From a virus, in IMG/VR virus record IMGVR_UViG_3300013102_000079, positions 1-22,126 of that record: a DNA stretch of 22,126 bases; one strand, given 5' to 3'. The translations under genes and the position numbers were made by a program. Below the pieces are notes generated by a model, which was not told the origin of the DNA, did not search any database, and saw only the letters and a list, made by a program, of their open reading frames with translations. The number at the start of each line of letters is the position of its first letter. Within the stretch, counting starts at the first letter, position 1. Below, one piece after another: positions 429 through 14,298 of this stretch.

Positions 429-751
429 GAATCACTGACTTTCTGGAAGCCAGGATTGCTGAGGATGAGGAGCGCGCCGAGTACGTCCTTAAATGGGGCG
501 ACTGGGGCGGGCTATTCAAACCACCCCGCGTCCTTGCTGAGTGCGCGGCGAAACGGGCGGTCCTGACTTTGCACCGCGATAATGGTGCGTCACAGGGTGA
601 CACGGATACGGGGTATGGTGTGCTGGACCATGCCTGCGCGACCTGCGGATCCTTCGGGGAGTATGGCGAAGAGTTCCCATGCGGGACGGTGACAGCCCTA
701 GCCTCCGTGTACGCTGACCACCCGGACTACCAGCAGAAGTGGGCTTCCTAG
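425..751 (+). CDS. DUF6221 family protein (copy 1)
   Basis: A 108-aa protein with both ends of the DUF6221 family: an N-terminal 'FLEARIAEDE' helix and a C-terminal 'YADHPDY..W' signature. The family is widespread in actinobacteria and their phages and has no known function. Between these ends lie a 'VLAECAAKRAVL' helix and three cysteines (CATC and a later Cys). The ATG overlaps the previous stop as ATGA, with GGAGA upstream. The TAG stop (749-751) overlaps the preferred GTG start of the integrase by one base. A second DUF6221 gene lies just beyond the integrase. Confidence 0.8.
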   Translation: MRITDFLEARIAEDEERAEYVLKWGDWGGLFKPPRVLAECAAKRAVLTLHRDNGASQGDTDTGYGVLDHACATCGSFGEYGEEFPCGTVTALASVYADHPDYQQKWAS

Positions 752-1896
752 TGGCTAGTATTGTTGAGCGTCCGCGTAAGAACGGGACCGTCAGTTATCA
801 GGTCAAGTGGCGTGAACCTGACGGGTCGTGGGGGTCCGAAACGTGGGGTACCCAATCCGAAGCGGAAATGTGGGTTCGTTTGCTCGACTCGTGCGACGGG
901 TCCAGTGCCGAAGCCCGCAAACGTTTCGATGAAGCCCGTAAAGGTGGCGTCACGTTGGGTGAAGTGTTCGACCAGCACCTAGCACAACTCACCAACGTCG
1001 GCCCGTACCAGCTCAAAAGGTACAGGTCCGCCATGGATGAGCACTTCGCAACCATGACAGGCCGCACAATTGCCGGCATCACCCGCACAGACATCACCTC
1101 CTGGGTCAACCAGATGCGGAAGAAACCCGGACGGTACGGGCAACCCATGGCGGCGAAAACAATAGCCAACCACCACGGGTTACTGTCCGCGTGCATGACC
1201 ACCGCTGTCATTCTCGGATACCGCCCAGACAATCCCTGCAAAGGTGTGAAGCTGCCCAAGTCAGCGCACACTGAGGAAATCATCCGGTTCATCACTCCTG
1301 CCGAGTGGGCAAGGATTATGGAGCACATGGACCCGCACTTCCGCCCGTTCTTCCAATTCCTTGTAGGGACAGGGCTGAGGTTCGGGTAAGCAACAGCACT
1401 CAGCGCACGGGACTTCGTTCTTGACGGGCCAACACCATCCGTGACCGTCAGTAAGGCGTGGAAAGAAGACGACTCCCGCGGGTTTTATATCGGCCCGCCT
1501 AAGACTAAGAAGTCGCGCCGCACTGTTTCCCTCGCGCCATCCACCGTTGAGGCTGTACGGCCCCTTGTGGAGGCTGCCGGGACCGGGTACGTGTTCAAGC
1601 TCAAGCGCGGCGGGGTCATGCGCTCAGGGTCCACCTATAACCGCGGGTGGGAGCCGGCGCTACTCAAAGCCGGGTATATGAAGACCACCAAAGACGAACC
1701 GGGGAACATGCCACGCATCCATGACTGTCGCCACACGCACGCCTCGTGGATGATCCAGGCGGGCATGGAAATCTTCCCGTTGTCACGCAGGTTAGGCCAT
1801 GAGTCGATAACAACTTCGCTCGACCGCTACTCGCACCTCATGCCGGACGCCTCATTCGCAGCCGCACAAATCGCACAAAAAGCCCTCGAAGGATAG
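751..1896 (+). pseudogene. int: Tyrosine-family site-specific integrase, interrupted by in-frame TAA
   Basis: Read through the stop, this is a 381-codon tyrosine recombinase of normal phage length, which would integrate and excise the phage at an att site. Residues 1-60 form the arm-binding domain ('RPRKNGTVSYQVKWREPDGSW'), about 65-165 the core-binding SAM-like domain, and about 175-370 the catalytic domain. Catalytic residues are visible: Arg210 (GTGLRFG), a Lys near 253 (KTKKSRR), His324 and Arg327 (HDCR), His350 (LGH) and the nucleophile Tyr360 (DRYSHL). A TAA at 1387-1389 falls two codons after Arg210 (GLRFG-stop-ATAL), where the family usually has Glu; GAA to TAA is one substitution. 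Both halves are in the same frame, so no frameshift is involved. The truncated product lacks every other catalytic residue. GTG 751 is preferred because it gives the family-typical N-terminus; GTG 739 is an alternative. Confidence 0.88.
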
Positions 1897-4781: not shown

Positions 4782-6500
4782 CTAGACTGCGTACAGGTGC
4801 GCGTTAGTTGTGTTCGCGTTGATGCTCACGACCAAGCCGGAATTGCTGGCGAACGTCACATCCGTGGGGATAGTTACCGGGTGCCGCAGGTTCAACGTCC
4901 CGCCTGCGGGGATGGTGTGCGTCCGGGTGGACGTCCCAACCGTAGAGGTCACCGTTGCGCCCGCCGTGCCTGTTACAGTCGCGGTGAGTTCCCTTGTTGA
5001 TCCGGGGATGTTCTGCCGGTACTGCGGGAAAGTGATCGTCTCTGAGAACGGGTTGCCTGTGCGGGTGGCGAGGATGTCATCCCGTGTGTTACTCCCAAGG
5101 TCGGCCACGCCCAGCCCAGACTTCGTAAGGACAACAATGTTTCCGGCATCCCTCTGCGCCACAATGTAGTCCAGAGTTGCGGTGAAGTCCGCGAGGGACT
5201 GCTTACCCGAAGCGCCGATGTTGTTTGCGTGCCACATCATCACGACGCCGGTCTTCCAGTCGCGGGCACGGTCCACGAGCACGGTAGCTTGCGAAAGGCT
5301 GGTGTAGGCGTCCACGCTGTAGTGGGTTTGCCCGTCGCGCAGCAGCCCGTCCAACGGGCGGTAGTAGCTGTTCTGGAAGTACCCAGACACAAGCGCGTAG
5401 TTGGCTTCCAGCGTCCGCCCCGCATAGGTTGTGGGCCACGCTTCAAGATCCTTCATCAACCACCCGTAGATGGTCTCCGAGCCGCCAGGAGGGGCGAAGC
5501 AGTCAATAGGCAGCTTCGGCATCGCAGTTCGCAGAGCACTGAGAGAACCAACAATCTCTGCGTAAATGTTCGTGTCGCCAGCAGCGTCAAGGTGTGTGGC
5601 TCCGTGGTTCCACACCTCACCGCCCGAGTCCAAGCAGTACGTCTGCATCGTCGGGAACTCTGAAGGGTCGATTGCCGTTCCGCTGATCGACTGTGACGTG
5701 CTCACCCTCGTGAACGGAAGGCGCCGCTCCACCAGCAAAGGCAAGATCGTTGTCCGAAACTCGACAGGGGCGTCATCAAACCGAAGCGCGATAACACCCT
5801 TGCCATTGGTGCCGATCCTGCCGCCCTTACGGGAAGTCAAGCCCTGTTGCAGGAGTTCGCGACGCACGGGGCCGGCAGAGTCAGATGCTGCCCCCGACCC
5901 TGCCAATGGGCTCCACGCCACATCAACACCGAGCACGGAACGCGAGCGTTTGAACGCTTGCATCGGCTGGCCGACGCCCTCTTCACTTGAATAGAAGAGC
6001 TGAATCTTGGCCGTCGCACCAATGGAGTAGGTGATAAAGACGCCAGGTCGCTCACTTGGCAAGCCCAAGGCCCGTGCCGTGATAACGTTGGGCACCTGGT
6101 ACGAGCCGGGCTTAAGTGCCCACAGATCCGTGGTCGAAGAGATGACAACTCCCGGCTTCCAGAAGGAATCCGTGGAAATTTCGGCCCAAGACGGGGACCA
6201 CGTATTGCTGATGCGGTGCCGGACAAACAGGCGCGATTCGACCGCCGTGTCCTCGATGGAATGCGCGAAGTAAGTCCTCGCGCCGGCCGTTCCGACAGGG
6301 ACGACCAGTAGCGAGTAGGGGCGTGCGCTAGGCAGACCCAACGCCGTGGCAATCGTGCCGTTTGTGATCGTATGCGCCCCGGCTGACAGAGTTGTGAGGT
6401 CGGAGGTTGATGTCAGCGGAATCGGGTTGAACCCAGCCCCGGGAATGCCTTGGGGCCCGCGGAGGTTAGCGACGTAGACCCATGCCCAGTTTGCGGCCAT
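4782..6500 (-). CDS. Minor tail protein with NodB polysaccharide deacetylase domain
   Basis: A 572-aa modular tail protein. Residues 13-22 hold a short collagen-like piece (LRGPQGIPGA). Residues about 27-110 and 117-200 are two similar knob-like repeats (each with 'ALGLPS.RP'), resembling pyocin-knob domains of tail fibres. Residues about 235-470 form a NodB-type deacetylase with metal and catalytic motifs: FDD (241-243), His299 and His303 (HGATH), PPGG (337-340) and WHA (423-425). The usual Arg of the third motif is not obvious. Residues about 475-572 form a beta-rich tail domain. It probably deacetylates cell-wall or surface glycan during attachment. The ATG overlaps the upstream stop by one base, with TAGGAG upstream. 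Confidence 0.85.
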   Translation of the reverse strand: MAANWAWVYVANLRGPQGIPGAGFNPIPLTSTSDLTTLSAGAHTITNGTIATALGLPSARPYSLLVVPVGTAGARTYFAHSIEDTAVESRLFVRHRISNTWSPSWAEISTDSFWKPGVVISSTTDLWALKPGSYQVPNVITARALGLPSERPGVFITYSIGATAKIQLFYSSEEGVGQPMQAFKRSRSVLGVDVAWSPLAGSGAASDSAGPVRRELLQQGLTSRKGGRIGTNGKGVIALRFDDAPVEFRTTILPLLVERRLPFTRVSTSQSISGTAIDPSEFPTMQTYCLDSGGEVWNHGATHLDAAGDTNIYAEIVGSLSALRTAMPKLPIDCFAPPGGSETIYGWLMKDLEAWPTTYAGRTLEANYALVSGYFQNSYYRPLDGLLRDGQTHYSVDAYTSLSQATVLVDRARDWKTGVVMMWHANNIGASGKQSLADFTATLDYIVAQRDAGNIVVLTKSGLGVADLGSNTRDDILATRTGNPFSETITFPQYRQNIPGSTRELTATVTGTAGATVTSTVGTSTRTHTIPAGGTLNLRHPVTIPTDVTFASNSGLVVSINANTTNAHLYAV

Positions 6501-9500: not shown

Positions 9501-10256
9501 CTAAATGTAAGTGTCAAGCAGCGTGAGAGTCGCCGTAGCAGTACCAGTAGTGACAGGTGCAATAGCAAGGGCAGTCGGTACGCCGGGGGTGACCAGCGGC
9601 GTAAACCCCCAGCCCAGCCCGCCATGAATAACAGACCCACCAATGCGCAACCTGCCGTCGCCGTAATCAATGCTGTGAGGCTGACCGGCCACAAGCGGCT
9701 TGGAAACCGTGAACACTTGGCCCTTGATGGTGAGTGTGTAACCGCCCGGCATGCTGCCCGCCACCACGAAACGAGGTGTCGCGTTGTAGTTGCCTCGGTG
9801 GAAGATGTTGCTAGCCGGCGCCCCAACAGACGCGGCCCAAGAACGCGTCTCCCCAAACTTCCGGGGATCCACAAACTTGAGCCGCACCTGCCACTGAGCC
9901 AACCTGTCAGTCACCGGCATAAACCGGACACTGCTATTCCTGCGCGCATCAGCCCACAGACTCGGGCCATGACCCTGCACCTTGAACCTGCCAAACATCG
10001 AAGACGACAAGTACGCCGCAGCCTCATGCATCTGATCGTGCGAATCCGTATGCAACATCCCCGACAACGTGAGCAACCTGGCCTGGTTATAGACCGGCAA
10101 ATCCAAATCACCATCAGCATCAGGACGAGAAACAACCTCACCCTTAATCTCCGGCGACCCCCACCAATCCTCCATACCATCGTTCACAGACCAGCGCCCG
10201 AACCTGTCAACCCCAGACAACGTGCGTGCACCCCAAGTGATATGCTCAACCGCCAA
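9501..10256 (-). CDS. Distal tail protein (Dit-like)
   Basis: A 251-aa protein following the tape measure gene. The N-terminal part 'AVEHITWGARTLSGVDRFGRW' and 'MLHTDSHDQMHEAAAYLSSS' are typical of actinophage distal tail/minor tail proteins that cap the tube. The C-terminal domain ('GGYTLTIKGQVFTVSKPL', 'IDYGDGRLRIGG') is beta-sandwich-like. The start is taken as TTG 10256, which has AGGGGGTG a few bases upstream and gives the family-typical N-terminus. It overlaps the tape measure stop by 11 bp. The longer frame to 10343 lies inside the tape measure gene and is unlikely. Confidence 0.75.
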   Translation of the reverse strand: MAVEHITWGARTLSGVDRFGRWSVNDGMEDWWGSPEIKGEVVSRPDADGDLDLPVYNQARLLTLSGMLHTDSHDQMHEAAAYLSSSMFGRFKVQGHGPSLWADARRNSSVRFMPVTDRLAQWQVRLKFVDPRKFGETRSWAASVGAPASNIFHRGNYNATPRFVVAGSMPGGYTLTIKGQVFTVSKPLVAGQPHSIDYGDGRLRIGGSVIHGGLGWGFTPLVTPGVPTALAIAPVTTGTATATLTLLDTYI

Positions 10257-13221
10257 GACGCACCCCCTGCTTCTGTAGTTCGAACTTGACCATGCCCAAC
10301 ACTTCGTCAGCCACCTCATGTGGCGCCGTAGAGCCATGCACATTCAACTCCAACGACACCGAAGCCCCAGCCGAAACAGGAGCCGGCGCATACCCGGCCT
10401 GAGCAGCCGAATACTCCTTCAACTTCGGGAACGTCCCCGCGTTGATAGCCGCCAACTCCGTGTTGTACTTGTCAGACGAGCGACCATTAACAACCCACTC
10501 CTGACCCTGCAACGCAATCGGACGACCACCATTCACGTAACCAATGAGGTTGTCCTTCGTCATGTCAGCAGGCCGCGCATAAGGCAACCTGCCACCAGAC
10601 CAGAACCCCAAAATGTCCGAAACCCGACCGCCCTTAGCGCCACCCAAAATTTGCTGCGGACCACCATTAGGAACCGCGCCAGGGTTATAGTTCGACTCGT
10701 AGTTCCGCTGGATCCGCTCAATCGTGTTGATCGTCACCGTGGACTGCTTGCCATCCAAGCTGTCAGCCTTGGACTTGATCGCATCCAACTTCGCCGTAGC
10801 GTTGTCGTTCACCCACGTAGCAATCGGGACTTCCTTAGGAATGCCCAACGCCTTACGCGCCATCGCATCAGCAGCGTCACCAGTGATCCCAAACTGACCA
10901 GCAGCAGCAACAAGATCGTCATACGAAGCCTGCAACGAAGCTTGCAACACACCCTGAGCAGCAGCCGAACCCTGACTAGCTAACGTCTCCGCAGCCTGCG
11001 CCTCAGCCGTCGCCATAGCCGCCTGAGCAAGACCATTGAAAGCAGACTGATTAGCGCGACCCTGCTCCGTGTTCAAATCAAGAGTCTTGCCGTTCTTCGT
11101 GATCGACTCAGTAACGGCATCAATCGTAGCCTCATACGCGATAGCCGAGTCAGATGCGGACAACGACAACAGCCCAGCGTTGAACAACGACTGCGTGAAC
11201 TTGTCAATGTCCGTGACCGAACCGTCAGCCGCAAGCCCAACATCCTCAAGGGCCTTAGCGATGTCCTCAGCAGAAGCCTTAGCGGCCTGAGCCGCCGCAT
11301 CCACCTTCGCAACAGACCCAGCAGCCTTATCACCAGACGCCGCAAGGCTCTTACTCTCAGCGTCAGCCTTCTGCAAAGCGTCCGCGTACTCCGGGAACTT
11401 CTTCTTGAGTTCGTCAACACTGATGCCCTGGCCCTCAGCCGAAGACTTGAGACGGTCAAACACCTTCGCCGCATCGGACGCGCTACCACCAGCCACAAGG
11501 GCAGCCATCTGCTCGTCAACGCGCTTGAACGAATCCCCAAGGATCTGGCTGGAACCCTTCACCCCAGTCATGGAGTTAATCAGGCCCTCGCCCCAGTCGT
11601 TGAACTGCCGCCCAGCATCAGGCTTGAACGTCCGCTTCAACGCCGAATCCAACGAATCAACATCATTGATAAGCTGCTTGCCGTCCTTGTCCTTGAACAA
11701 AGAATCAAGCCCCGACGCAGCATCAGGAGAGTTCCGCGAAACATCCGCAAGAACGTTCGCCACCCGGCCCATGCCCGTATCAATCTTCGACATGTAATCC
11801 GCTTCGGCAAGCTTCGCCAAAACCAGCGTCAAAGTGCCGATAGCCATAGCAGCGCCGGCACCCTTACCCACGCCCTCAAGCGCGGTCCGGGCCTTACCCC
11901 CAGCAGGGGCTAGCTTGTCGAACGCCTGCTTAGTTTCCAACACCTTAGGCGTCAGGTTCAACACCGCGCCGGCAGCCAACCCAGCCGTACCAACAATTGC
12001 CAAAAGGGTCGCGCCAATACCAAGCACAGGGCCAGGGATGTCACCAATCGCGTCAACCAGGTCCTCTGCCCTCTGGGTCAGGCCGCGCAAGAAATCATTC
12101 GCACCCGAACCAGACTTGAGGAACACCGAGTCCATGGACCCGCCAAGCTTCTCAATATCACCGGCAAGGTTGTCCTGCTTGATAGCCGCGGTCTCAGCAG
12201 CGAACCCAGCATCATTAACAGCGGCTTCCCACTTGTTAATCCCAGCAGCGCCCTGCTCGTAAAGGACGTTAGCGGCACGCACAGCATCAGAGCCGAACAG
12301 TGTTTTCAGTGTCGCGTTTCGCTGCTCATCGGACATATCCTTGAGCGCATTCTGCAAAATGCCGGCGTACTCTGACATGCCTACGAACTTGCCCTGAGCG
12401 TCATACGCCGAGATGCCCAGCTCGTTCATCAACGTGGCAGCAGCAGCGGAGTTCGGGTTGAGGCTCATGAGCATGGTCTTGAACGACGTGCCAGCATCCG
12501 AACCAGTCAAACCCGCCGCAGCGAACGCAGCCAAGGAACCCGTGGTTTCCTCAATCGTCAAACCTGTAGACGCAGCCACAAGGCCTGACTGATTCAACGC
12601 TGCACCCAAGTCACTAACGGAGCCCTGAGCCTTGCCAGCCCCAGCCGCCAACAGATCCGCGAGGTGAGGGATCTTATCGCCCGACAACTTGAACTGAGTC
12701 AACGCTGACGCCGAGATTTCCGCAGCCTCAGCAACACCCAAAGAACCAGCAGCAGCCAAATCCAGCGAACCCTTAAGCCCGCCGCCCATGATGTCCTTAG
12801 TTGAGACACCAGCCTTAGCCAATTCCTCAATGCCCTGAGCAGCCTCAACAGCAGAGAACGCAGTATCCGCGCCGGCCTTCACCGCAGCATCACGCAACTG
12901 GGCCATGTTCCCGGCAGTCTCATGCGTCGCCGCCTGGACCGAAGACATCTGCTTATCAAAGTCGGCGTAAGACTTCACAGCTAAACCAACCCCGGCAACC
13001 ATCGCAGCGCCAGCCGTAGCCGTCACCGCGCCAGTGCGCTCCCAGGCCTCACTGTTCTTCGTCGCAGACTGAACCATCCGACCAAGATGAGTAGTAGCAG
13101 CCTTATCAGCATCTTCCGAAGCCTTCTTAGTCTTCTGGGTAGCCTTAGCGGCCTCATCCATAGCCTGCTTGAAGCCCTGAATCTCCGCACTGAATATGAC
13201 TTTGACGCGGCGCTCAGCCAT
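10246..13221 (-). CDS. Tail tape measure protein
   Basis: A 991-aa protein, the longest in the window. Residues 1-60 are a helical start (MAERRVKVIFSAEIQGFKQA) and about 75-400 match the TP901-type tape measure core ('FDKQMSSVQAATHETAG', 'GIEELAKAGVST', 'AALNQSGLVAASTGLT'). A hydrophobic stretch lies near 405-430 (GPVLGIGATLLAIVGTAGLAAG). The rest is Ala-rich helix. The protein sets tail length; about 991 residues would suit a tail of roughly 150 nm by the usual 1.5 angstrom per residue. ATG 13221 has GGAGGAA upstream and is preferred over the longer frame. No lysozyme or peptidase domain is visible. Confidence 0.93.
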   Translation of the reverse strand: MAERRVKVIFSAEIQGFKQAMDEAAKATQKTKKASEDADKAATTHLGRMVQSATKNSEAWERTGAVTATAGAAMVAGVGLAVKSYADFDKQMSSVQAATHETAGNMAQLRDAAVKAGADTAFSAVEAAQGIEELAKAGVSTKDIMGGGLKGSLDLAAAGSLGVAEAAEISASALTQFKLSGDKIPHLADLLAAGAGKAQGSVSDLGAALNQSGLVAASTGLTIEETTGSLAAFAAAGLTGSDAGTSFKTMLMSLNPNSAAAATLMNELGISAYDAQGKFVGMSEYAGILQNALKDMSDEQRNATLKTLFGSDAVRAANVLYEQGAAGINKWEAAVNDAGFAAETAAIKQDNLAGDIEKLGGSMDSVFLKSGSGANDFLRGLTQRAEDLVDAIGDIPGPVLGIGATLLAIVGTAGLAAGAVLNLTPKVLETKQAFDKLAPAGGKARTALEGVGKGAGAAMAIGTLTLVLAKLAEADYMSKIDTGMGRVANVLADVSRNSPDAASGLDSLFKDKDGKQLINDVDSLDSALKRTFKPDAGRQFNDWGEGLINSMTGVKGSSQILGDSFKRVDEQMAALVAGGSASDAAKVFDRLKSSAEGQGISVDELKKKFPEYADALQKADAESKSLAASGDKAAGSVAKVDAAAQAAKASAEDIAKALEDVGLAADGSVTDIDKFTQSLFNAGLLSLSASDSAIAYEATIDAVTESITKNGKTLDLNTEQGRANQSAFNGLAQAAMATAEAQAAETLASQGSAAAQGVLQASLQASYDDLVAAAGQFGITGDAADAMARKALGIPKEVPIATWVNDNATAKLDAIKSKADSLDGKQSTVTINTIERIQRNYESNYNPGAVPNGGPQQILGGAKGGRVSDILGFWSGGRLPYARPADMTKDNLIGYVNGGRPIALQGQEWVVNGRSSDKYNTELAAINAGTFPKLKEYSAAQAGYAPAPVSAGASVSLELNVHGSTAPHEVADEVLGMVKFELQKQGVRLGG

Positions 13222-13239
13222 GACGTTCCTCCAAAAGGG

Positions 13240-13273
13240 GTGACAAAAGAAGCCGCCATGCGACAATTGCGGA
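13240..13273 (+). promoter_or_regulatory. Candidate promoter of the small membrane protein, leaderless start
   Basis: GTGACA (13240-13245; 5 of 6 matches to TTGACA) and GACAAT (13262-13267; 4 of 6 matches to TATAAT) are 16 bp apart. ATG 13274 follows the -10 by 6 nt, so the mRNA would begin at or next to the start codon. The element lies just upstream of the tape measure gene on the opposite strand. Confidence 0.5.
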
Positions 13274-13489
13274 ATGGATCAGGCCACGAAAGCGAACAAA
13301 CGCAAGGCAGCGAACATCATGAAAGTTGGCGCCGGAATGATCGTCTTCGGCGTCGCGGTCGCGCTGATAACAGCAGGGGAGAACGGCAACCCAGGGCTTA
13401 GCGGGTTCTCAGCGTTCGTCGCTTTTGCGGGGCTAATCGTCCTGATAATCGGTGCCGGCAAGTGGCGGGAACGGCCTACGAGTGATTAG
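13274..13489 (+). CDS. Small two-helix membrane protein against the tail operon (moron candidate)
   Basis: A 71-aa protein with a basic N-terminus (KANKRKAANIMK) and two strong hydrophobic helices, about 17-33 (VGAGMIVFGVAVALITA) and about 43-62 (GFSAFVAFAGLIVLIIGAG). No family is recognised. It is read rightwards inside a leftward operon, between tape measure and tail chaperone genes, and has its own promoter-like sequence. Its 3' end overlaps the predicted frameshifted chaperone by 57 bp on the other strand. A role in superinfection immunity or lysogen fitness is plausible only by analogy with small phage membrane proteins. Confidence 0.65.
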   Translation: MDQATKANKRKAANIMKVGAGMIVFGVAVALITAGENGNPGLSGFSAFVAFAGLIVLIIGAGKWRERPTSD

Positions 13490-14298
13490 CTCGTCGTCAA
13501 TCTCGGTAGCGTAGAAACGCTGCCCCGGTTCAGGCTTGAAATTCTTCTGCCCCGTATGTTCCTCAACCGCAGCCTGCCGGTAACAGGTTGTGTCCTGCAC
13601 CTCGTACAAGCCCTGGTTGGCTTCGTTCCTGCACTCCGAGCGGTTACCGCCACACGTGTCACAGATGCCATCTAGGTACAACGTGTAGGCGTACTCAAGC
13701 AGCCGGTCCTTGCGTTCCGTTAGCCGTCCAAGATAAGCAGAAGGCGGACGCTGAAACCGCTCACTCGTCTTAAGAGCCGCTACTACTCGTCCCCATCGCC
13801 CCGAGTGGAGGACTTCGGCAAAAAATCGGCGCTCACAACAGGCACCTCATTATTCGCCTGATGAAAAGCAGCAAGGATACCCAAGAACTGCGCCTCACCA
13901 ATACGCGCCTTCAACTTCTCAACCTGCGCCGGAGTCGCCCTCGGAGAAACCAAAGCCTCAGCCAGGATCTTGTACGTCAACGCACGACCCTCAAGCTTCG
14001 GGTCAGCCTCCTGGATAGCAAGCCGCTCATCCTCATCCAAACCCTGAACCCGGATCGTCAACGCCGAATCATGGAACTGCTGCGCAAGTTTCGCGTACTC
14101 GGCACGAAGCTTCTGCACACCGCCGCCCATCGACGGACCATCAACCTCATCATCGGGCTCGGCGTGCTCAATCTTGGCTGCGAGTTCGTCAAGGTCAGCG
14201 ATCAAACCGGCCTTCTGATACACCGTCACAGAACGTTGCGGCTTATCCGCACCATCCAACCAAGCATCAAAATCAAAATCCTGCGGGGGAACACTCAT
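13433..14298 (-). CDS. Tail assembly chaperone, -1 frameshift product (GT-like)
   Basis: If ribosomes slip back one base at T-TTT-TTG (13825-13819), the first 160 residues of the upstream chaperone continue into a second frame for 128 more, giving a 288-aa protein. The extension begins AEVLHSGRWGRVV and ends with a cysteine-containing part ('LDGICDTCGGNRSEC', 'VQDTTCYRQAA') and an acidic end (DYQDD). The second frame has no convincing start of its own, lies directly before the tape measure gene and follows the gpG/gpGT pattern of siphoviruses, where both forms help load tail tube protein on the tape measure. Its last 57 bp overlap a rightward gene. Confidence 0.75.
13783..14298 (-). CDS. Tail assembly chaperone, unshifted product (G-like)
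   Basis: A 171-aa acidic helical protein ('FDFDAWLDGADKPQRSVTVYQKAGLIADLDELAAKIE', later 'LTYKILAEALVSPRATPAQVEKLKARIG') in the position and with the character of actinophage tail assembly chaperones. ATG 14298 has GGAG about 8 nt upstream. It follows the hairpin after the major tail gene. The C-terminal 10 residues after the slip site are Ser/Asp-rich. Confidence 0.82.
   Translation of the reverse strand: MSVPPQDFDFDAWLDGADKPQRSVTVYQKAGLIADLDELAAKIEHAEPDDEVDGPSMGGGVQKLRAEYAKLAQQFHDSALTIRVQGLDEDERLAIQEADPKLEGRALTYKILAEALVSPRATPAQVEKLKARIGEAQFLGILAAFHQANNEVPVVSADFLPKSSTRGDGDE
13819..13825 (-). promoter_or_regulatory. Programmed -1 frameshift slippery site TTTTTTG
   Basis: On the minus strand the heptamer T-TTT-TTG has exactly the X-XXY-YYZ register relative to the upstream gene (codons TTT TTG). 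It lies 10 codons plus stop before the end of that gene. Slippage leads into the open frame that ends at 13433. Confidence 0.7.

What the first reader, a model, noticed from the sequence alone, without database searches (positions are those of the whole stretch)
13240..13489. Leaderless two-helix membrane gene inserted against the tail operon between chaperone and tape measure
A 71-aa membrane protein reads opposite to all its neighbours. GTGACA-16-GACAAT lies 6 nt before its ATG and no ribosome site is present. Its 3' end is antisense to the last 57 bp of the frameshifted chaperone frame. Chaperone and tape genes are usually adjacent with nothing between. An independently expressed lysogenic gene here is unusual and could modify the host surface or block superinfection.
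Basis: partly seen in the sequence, partly recalled or inferred. Interest (0 to 1): 0.62.

Follow-up and report, generated by a model that had tools for sequence, protein, structure and literature searches.

The report
Leaderless reverse membrane gene beside tape-measure
A temperate soil-bacterium (Arthrobacter-type) phage carries a small two-helix membrane protein gene that reads against its tail genes from its own start signal; relatives put different but similarly built envelope proteins in exactly this spot, which suggests an exchangeable gene for the dormant phage, most likely one that blocks rival phages.

Summary
ORF 13274-13489 (+, 71 aa, two TM helices) lies between the frameshifted tail chaperone (TAC) and the tape measure gene (TMP), against both. 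It is under protein-level purifying selection (dN/dS about 0.17 where it overlaps no other gene). All 17 family members compared keep a sigma-A-like -10 (.A...T) 6-7 nt before ATG and no Shine-Dalgarno: a conserved leaderless gene. Of 61 non-redundant junctions found by TMP similarity, 26 carry a reverse two-TM or lipoprotein ORF (0.2% in a null), in many unrelated families; others are cleanly empty, including close relative L089 (14-bp gap). Gordonia phage Pollux and contig L119 carry leaderless lipoproteins there. Carriers checked are temperate; the window itself has an integrase gene, broken by one stop. HK97's exclusion gene gp15 occupies the same slot but is unrelated, same-strand and single-TM. 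Best reading: a moron made in lysogens, most likely a superinfection-exclusion protein acting at DNA injection. Expression and function are inferred, not shown. A reverse gene here was already noted for Gordonia cluster DN (PMC9476921); the leaderless, interchangeable-envelope-protein pattern appears undescribed.

The parts
13240..13245 (+). -35-like hexamer GTGACA
   Evidence: sequence; relatives mostly have TTTTA-type at about 17 nt from the -10
13259..13260 (+). extended -10 TG
   Evidence: most family members have TG one base before the -10 hexamer
13262..13267 (+). -10 hexamer GACAAT, 6 nt before ATG
   Evidence.A...T at 6-7 nt in 17/17 family members and 25/31 genes at this junction, against 8.3% of ATGs
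13274..13489 (+). 71-aa two-TM membrane protein, leaderless start
   Evidence: dN/dS 0.17
13316..13372 (+). transmembrane helix 1 (about residues 15-33)
   Evidence: hydropathy, AF2 helix 3-33
13397..13453 (+). transmembrane helix 2 (about residues 42-60)
   Evidence: hydropathy, AF2 helix 40-65
13433..13489 (.). 57-bp tail-to-tail overlap with the TAC extension; encodes the conserved C-terminal tail
   Evidence: the RERPA-type tail is shared by otherwise different junction proteins
13433..13681 (-). C-terminal part of the frameshifted tail assembly chaperone (listed from its first TTG)
   Evidence: homologous to joined TAC genes of Pitbull and Hum25
13783..14298 (-). tail assembly chaperone, short form
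   Evidence: phrog_15960 E=2e-6
13228..13232 (-). Shine-Dalgarno (GGAGG) of the tape measure gene, beside the divergent promoter
   Evidence: sequence
10246..13221 (-). tape measure protein gene
   Evidence: PhageMin_Tail 8e-48, phrog_1533 4e-91
739..1896 (+). tyrosine integrase gene with one in-frame stop at 1387-1389
   Evidence: phrog_1 on both halves, PF00589 on the second: temperate ancestry

Best explanation
The gene is a small moron of a temperate actinophage. In the prophage, while the tail operon is silent, host sigma-A RNA polymerase uses the extended -10 promoter at 13240-13267 and starts at or next to the ATG, giving a leaderless mRNA. The product is a 71-aa helical hairpin in the cytoplasmic membrane, predicted with both ends inside. 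It most likely protects the lysogen from superinfection by related siphophages at the DNA-injection step, by interfering with the incoming tape measure protein or its membrane partner, as proposed for HK97 gp15 and reported for the lipoprotein Ltp. Its place beside the tape gene keeps exclusion gene and target linked, and the slot takes exchangeable cassettes. Shown by sequence comparison: real protein-coding gene, conserved leaderless promoter geometry, temperate setting, cassette slot with empty sites and unrelated replacements. Inferred: transcription in lysogens, membrane topology, exclusion, tape measure as target.
For: Homologues at the identical junction and orientation in Pitbull, Hum25, 19 IMG/VR loci and six chromosomal prophages. 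Purifying selection outside overlaps. Leaderless -10 geometry in 17/17. In L008/L016 an HNH gene replaced the -35 side but left the extended -10 and ORF intact. Unrelated two-TM proteins, and lipoproteins in Pollux and L119, in the same slot, same strand, same promoter geometry. Null 0.2% against 26/61. Empty sites: L089 14 bp, L101, L105, L109, L122. Carriers temperate: Hum25, Judy, TripleJ, Footloose, Faja, Isolde, Pollux; phage Ajin, with no integrase in the part read, has a 2-bp gap. HK97 gp15, an exclusion protein whose block is escaped with HK022 tail tube and tape genes, sits between TAC and TMP (PMC10883804). Membrane-gene divergence tracks TMP 551-700 and 851-1000 (rho 0.67-0.70) better than the adjacent TMP N-terminus (0.33).
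Against: No expression or phenotype data. No similarity to any known exclusion protein. The TMP correlation is confounded by phylogeny: the TAC extension correlates as well (0.72) and partial values fall to 0.11-0.47 (n=13). No terminator follows the gene on +. Some temperate phages lack any gene there (Bbif-1, phiGD20-1).
Confidence: 0.5

Rival explanations
1. A lysogeny-expressed membrane protein with another benefit to host or prophage (stress, surface or physiology effect, membrane-depolarising abortive infection, or a block of a later step such as tail assembly, as Tab does), not exclusion at injection.
For: Same promoter and temperate evidence as above. Tab, an 83-residue prophage moron from a late operon, acts on the tape measure of other phages by blocking tail assembly (PMC10884400).
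Against: Tab is described as recognising the tape measure made during infection, whereas products here are membrane proteins and even lipoproteins with signal peptides, which points to the envelope. No defence-family match.
Confidence: 0.27
2. It works in the lytic cycle, for example as a holin-like, anti-holin or early membrane factor, or as an aid to tail assembly.
For: Two-TM size resembles actinophage holins; sub-threshold hits to Phage_holin_3_6 in two relatives (E 0.02-0.03).
Against: It is opposite to the late operon with its own host-type promoter; Hum25 and Pitbull have a separate holin next to endolysin; absent from many related phages.
Confidence: 0.1
3. The main product is an antisense RNA that silences tail chaperone or frameshift translation in lysogens.
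For: The transcript would run into the chaperone frame (57-bp overlap and on, no terminator).
Against: Strong amino-acid conservation in the part that overlaps no other gene; unrelated proteins of the same topology replace it.
Confidence: 0.05
4. A selfish insertion with no phage benefit, kept at a hot spot also used by HNH endonucleases.
For: HNH genes at the same junction in L016/L087, L090 and Footloose; HNH between TAC and tmp also in cluster O mycobacteriophages (PMC4351075).
Against: Purifying selection, ordinary GC (0.58 as the window), consistent envelope targeting.
Confidence: 0.08

Closest known systems
HK97 gp15 moron (superinfection exclusion)
   Same: Gene between TAC and tape measure of a temperate siphophage, small membrane protein; gp15 exclusion is escaped with HK022 tail tube and tape genes (PMC10883804).
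   Different: No sequence similarity; gp15 has one hydrophobic segment and a soluble tail, matches YebO, is on the same strand with an SD and a terminator annotated after it.
Ltp lipoprotein of TP-J34
   Same: Envelope protein made in lysogens that stops DNA injection and targets the tape measure protein (PMC3952083, PMC11480721); lipoproteins occur at this junction in Pollux and L119.
   Different: ltp lies in the lysogeny module; this protein is a two-TM hairpin, not a lipoprotein.
Reverse genes between TAC and tape measure in Gordonia cluster DN phages
   Different: The passage read gives no promoter, topology or function and does not link to other clusters.
Leaderless leftward gene in the structural operon of cluster O phages (Corndog 53)
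   Same: SigA-like leaderless promoter on a reverse gene inside the structural operon (PMC4351075).
   Different: Relation to this protein or this exact junction not tested.
Tab of JBD26
   Same: Small prophage moron in a late operon acting on the tape measure of other phages (PMC10884400).
   Different: Between the terminase genes, not this junction; blocks tail assembly, not entry.

Membership tests
Phage moron | extra gene present or absent among related genomes at a fixed junction | tested here: met
   L089 empty (14 bp) with TMP core 94% identical to the window; other empty pairs
Phage moron | own promoter | tested here: met
   conserved -10 geometry 17/17; sequence evidence only
Phage moron | own terminator | tested here: not met
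   no + strand terminator-like site after the gene
Phage moron | expressed from the prophage | not testable with these tools
   no RNA data
HK97 gp15 family (phrog_5031) | sequence similarity | tested here: not met
   no match up to E=10; blastp unlinked
HK97 gp15 family (phrog_5031) | position between TAC and tape measure | tested here: met
HK97 gp15 family (phrog_5031) | blocks DNA injection | not testable with these tools
   needs plaque and DNA-entry assays
Imm_superinfect (PF14373) | profile match | tested here: not met
   no match in the window up to E=10
Ltp-type lipoprotein | signal peptide with lipobox | tested here: not met
   two-TM hairpin here; lipobox only in Pollux gp17 and L119
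Leaderless gene | -10 placed so that +1 is at the start codon, no SD | tested here: met
   transcription start itself not mapped
Holin | holin family match and lysis-cassette position | tested here: not met
   only sub-threshold hits in relatives; separate holin annotated

The most novel reading that the evidence does not exclude
The chaperone/tape-measure junction of temperate actinophages is a dedicated exchange slot for leaderless, prophage-expressed envelope proteins (two-TM hairpins and lipoproteins of many unrelated families) that exclude other phages by acting on the tape measure encoded next door: a large, nearly unannotated reservoir of exclusion genes findable by position and promoter alone.
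Probability: 0.4. Interest if true: 0.72.

Novelty: new variant of a known kind. Interest (0 to 1): 0.52.

Why it matters
Superinfection exclusion in Gram-positive hosts is known from few proteins. A fixed genomic address with a fixed promoter signature gives a simple rule for collecting candidates (26 of 61 junctions surveyed), many unannotated or with doubtful starts (Pitbull: not called; Hum25 gp16: start called late; Isolde: not called). If the products act on the neighbouring tape measure type, the locus makes the question of how tape measure and membrane protein meet during DNA entry directly testable in Arthrobacter and Gordonia.

Tried and rejected
Spurious ORF antisense to tail genes: rejected by dN/dS and same-length homologues. 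Known families: PHROGs (only weak phrog_31852 E=0.003, unknown), Pfam (sub-threshold DUF202 and DUF6249), NCBIfam (SLATT_1 E=0.07, far below cut-off), PADLOC (none), PDB sequences (none credible), BFVD folds (none with E<=0.001). DNA relatives in plasmids: none. Homology between the junction families: suggestive by profile (hhalign 93%) but inflated by hydrophobic composition; after removing the overlap-encoded tail they split into many clusters, so one superfamily is not claimed. Co-divergence with TMP: real correlation but not separable from phylogeny. Cumby 2012 is not held. The survey null was taken inside TMP genes, not at other intergenic gaps, and start codons were chosen with preference for a -10, so the 22 of 26 figure is somewhat generous.

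Full report
Observation. The window is a virus record of 22,126 bp with head and tail genes on the - strand. ORF 13274-13489 reads on +, about 50 bp from the tape measure start (13221) and overlapping the end of the frameshifted chaperone by 57 bp (13433-13489). Its only promoter-like site is GTGACA-16-GACAAT with a TG before the -10, 6 nt from the ATG. No Shine-Dalgarno is present.

Relatives. tblastn finds Arthrobacter phages Pitbull (not annotated) and Hum25 (gp16 'membrane protein', start called 45 nt downstream of the conserved ATG) at the same junction and orientation. IMG/VR gives 19 loci, and genome contigs one prophage in Arthrobacter sp. cf158. A profile search of 395 genomes of that host family finds convincing copies in six, all beside TMP and TAC genes on the opposite strand; the G026 copy appears in two frames.

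Selection and promoter. In codons 1-53, which overlap no other gene, mean dN/dS is about 0.17, and 0.07 for window against L012. All 17 aligned upstream regions have .A...T at 6 or 7 nt before ATG; information content peaks at -11 and -7, at a TG at -15/-14 and at a TTTTA block near -35. Such a hexamer precedes 8.3% of ATGs in the window. In L008/L016 an HNH gene with a hairpin before a T-rich run replaced everything upstream of the extended -10, which survives with the ORF. A leaderless start is thus conserved; the transcript itself is inferred.

The slot. TMP relatives in named phages show a reverse small gene at the same junction in EvePickles, Kukla, Faja, Seahorse, Judy, TripleJ, Phrank15 and Footloose, and unannotated in Isolde. 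Seahorse is an exception in having an SD-like stretch before its annotated start. L035/L036 carry an unrelated 69-aa membrane protein with the same 57-bp overlap. From 80 contigs chosen by TMP similarity, 61 non-redundant junctions were tested: 26 have a reverse two-TM or lipoprotein ORF, 22 of these with the -10 at 6-7 nt; the same search at 2,440 places inside TMP genes gives 0.2% and 0.08%. Without the tail encoded by the chaperone overlap, blastp leaves several clusters and many singletons. Gordonia phage Pollux gp17, read from the ATG at L078:2240, is a lipoprotein (MKKISMAVAACLSLAVSAGC) with TACGAT 6 nt upstream; L119 has another lipoprotein. Junctions with the gene mostly have TAC-TMP gaps of about 150-270 bp; many without it have 1-40 bp, including L089, a close relative in TMP. 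The gap measure is rough, since spurious open frames affect some loci.

Life style. Hum25, Judy, TripleJ, Footloose, Faja, Isolde and Pollux have integrase and repressor or HTH genes. Ajin has no integrase in the 22-57 kb part read and a 2-bp gap. Bbif-1, D_HF5_3 and phiGD20-1 have short gaps and no gene, so the gene is optional in temperate phages. The window has a tyrosine integrase gene at 739-1896 with one in-frame stop at 1387-1389.

Mechanism. A membrane hairpin (AF2 helices 3-33 and 40-65, pLDDT 83) with basic ends fits an N-in, C-in cytoplasmic membrane protein (inference by the positive-inside rule). HK97 gp15 sits in the same slot and is an exclusion protein escaped by hybrids with HK022 tail tube and tape genes; Ltp, a lipoprotein, is overcome by tape measure changes (PMC10883804; PMC11480721). 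The present family is unrelated to gp15 in sequence and is not a lipoprotein. Divergence of the membrane protein tracks the TMP middle and C-terminal parts more than the adjacent TMP N-terminus, but also the TAC extension, so target choice stays open.

Known or new. A reverse gene at this junction is noted for Gordonia cluster DN (PMC9476921), and a leaderless reverse gene in the structural operon for cluster O (PMC4351075). In the papers found I saw no description of the joint pattern of leaderless start, envelope targeting and interchangeable families; the library holds open-licence papers only. It is filed as a new variant of a known kind (moron with probable exclusion function), not as a member of the gp15 or Ltp families.

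Noticed in passing
window 739-1896 (+): Tyrosine integrase gene interrupted by an in-frame stop at 1387-1389; both halves match phrog_1. Decayed prophage or assembly error.
   Followed up: partly
window 4782-6500 (-): Tail protein (phrog_11373) with a polysaccharide deacetylase domain (PF01522), possibly cell-wall acting.
   Followed up: no
L008/L016, L090, L052 (Footloose gp16): HNH endonuclease genes inserted at the same chaperone/tape junction; in L016 the insertion ends right at the extended -10.
   Followed up: partly
L078:1773-2240 (-), Gordonia phage Pollux gp17: Annotated start is late; the upstream ATG gives a lipoprotein signal peptide with a leaderless -10.
   Followed up: yes
L003:8501-8545, Hum25 gp16; L054:2778-2957, Isolde; L002:8501-8716, Pitbull: Hum25 gene start annotated 45 nt late; Isolde and Pitbull copies not annotated.
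   Followed up: yes
L066 (genome G026): Prophage copy of the membrane gene appears split between two frames (pseudogene or sequencing error).
   Followed up: no
L052 (Footloose), upstream of gp15: Inverted repeat ACCGCC...GGCGGT lies just before and into the -10, operator-like.
   Followed up: no
L134, L137 junctions: About 214-bp gaps with a reverse, non-hydrophobic ORF: possibly other cargo in the same slot.
   Followed up: no
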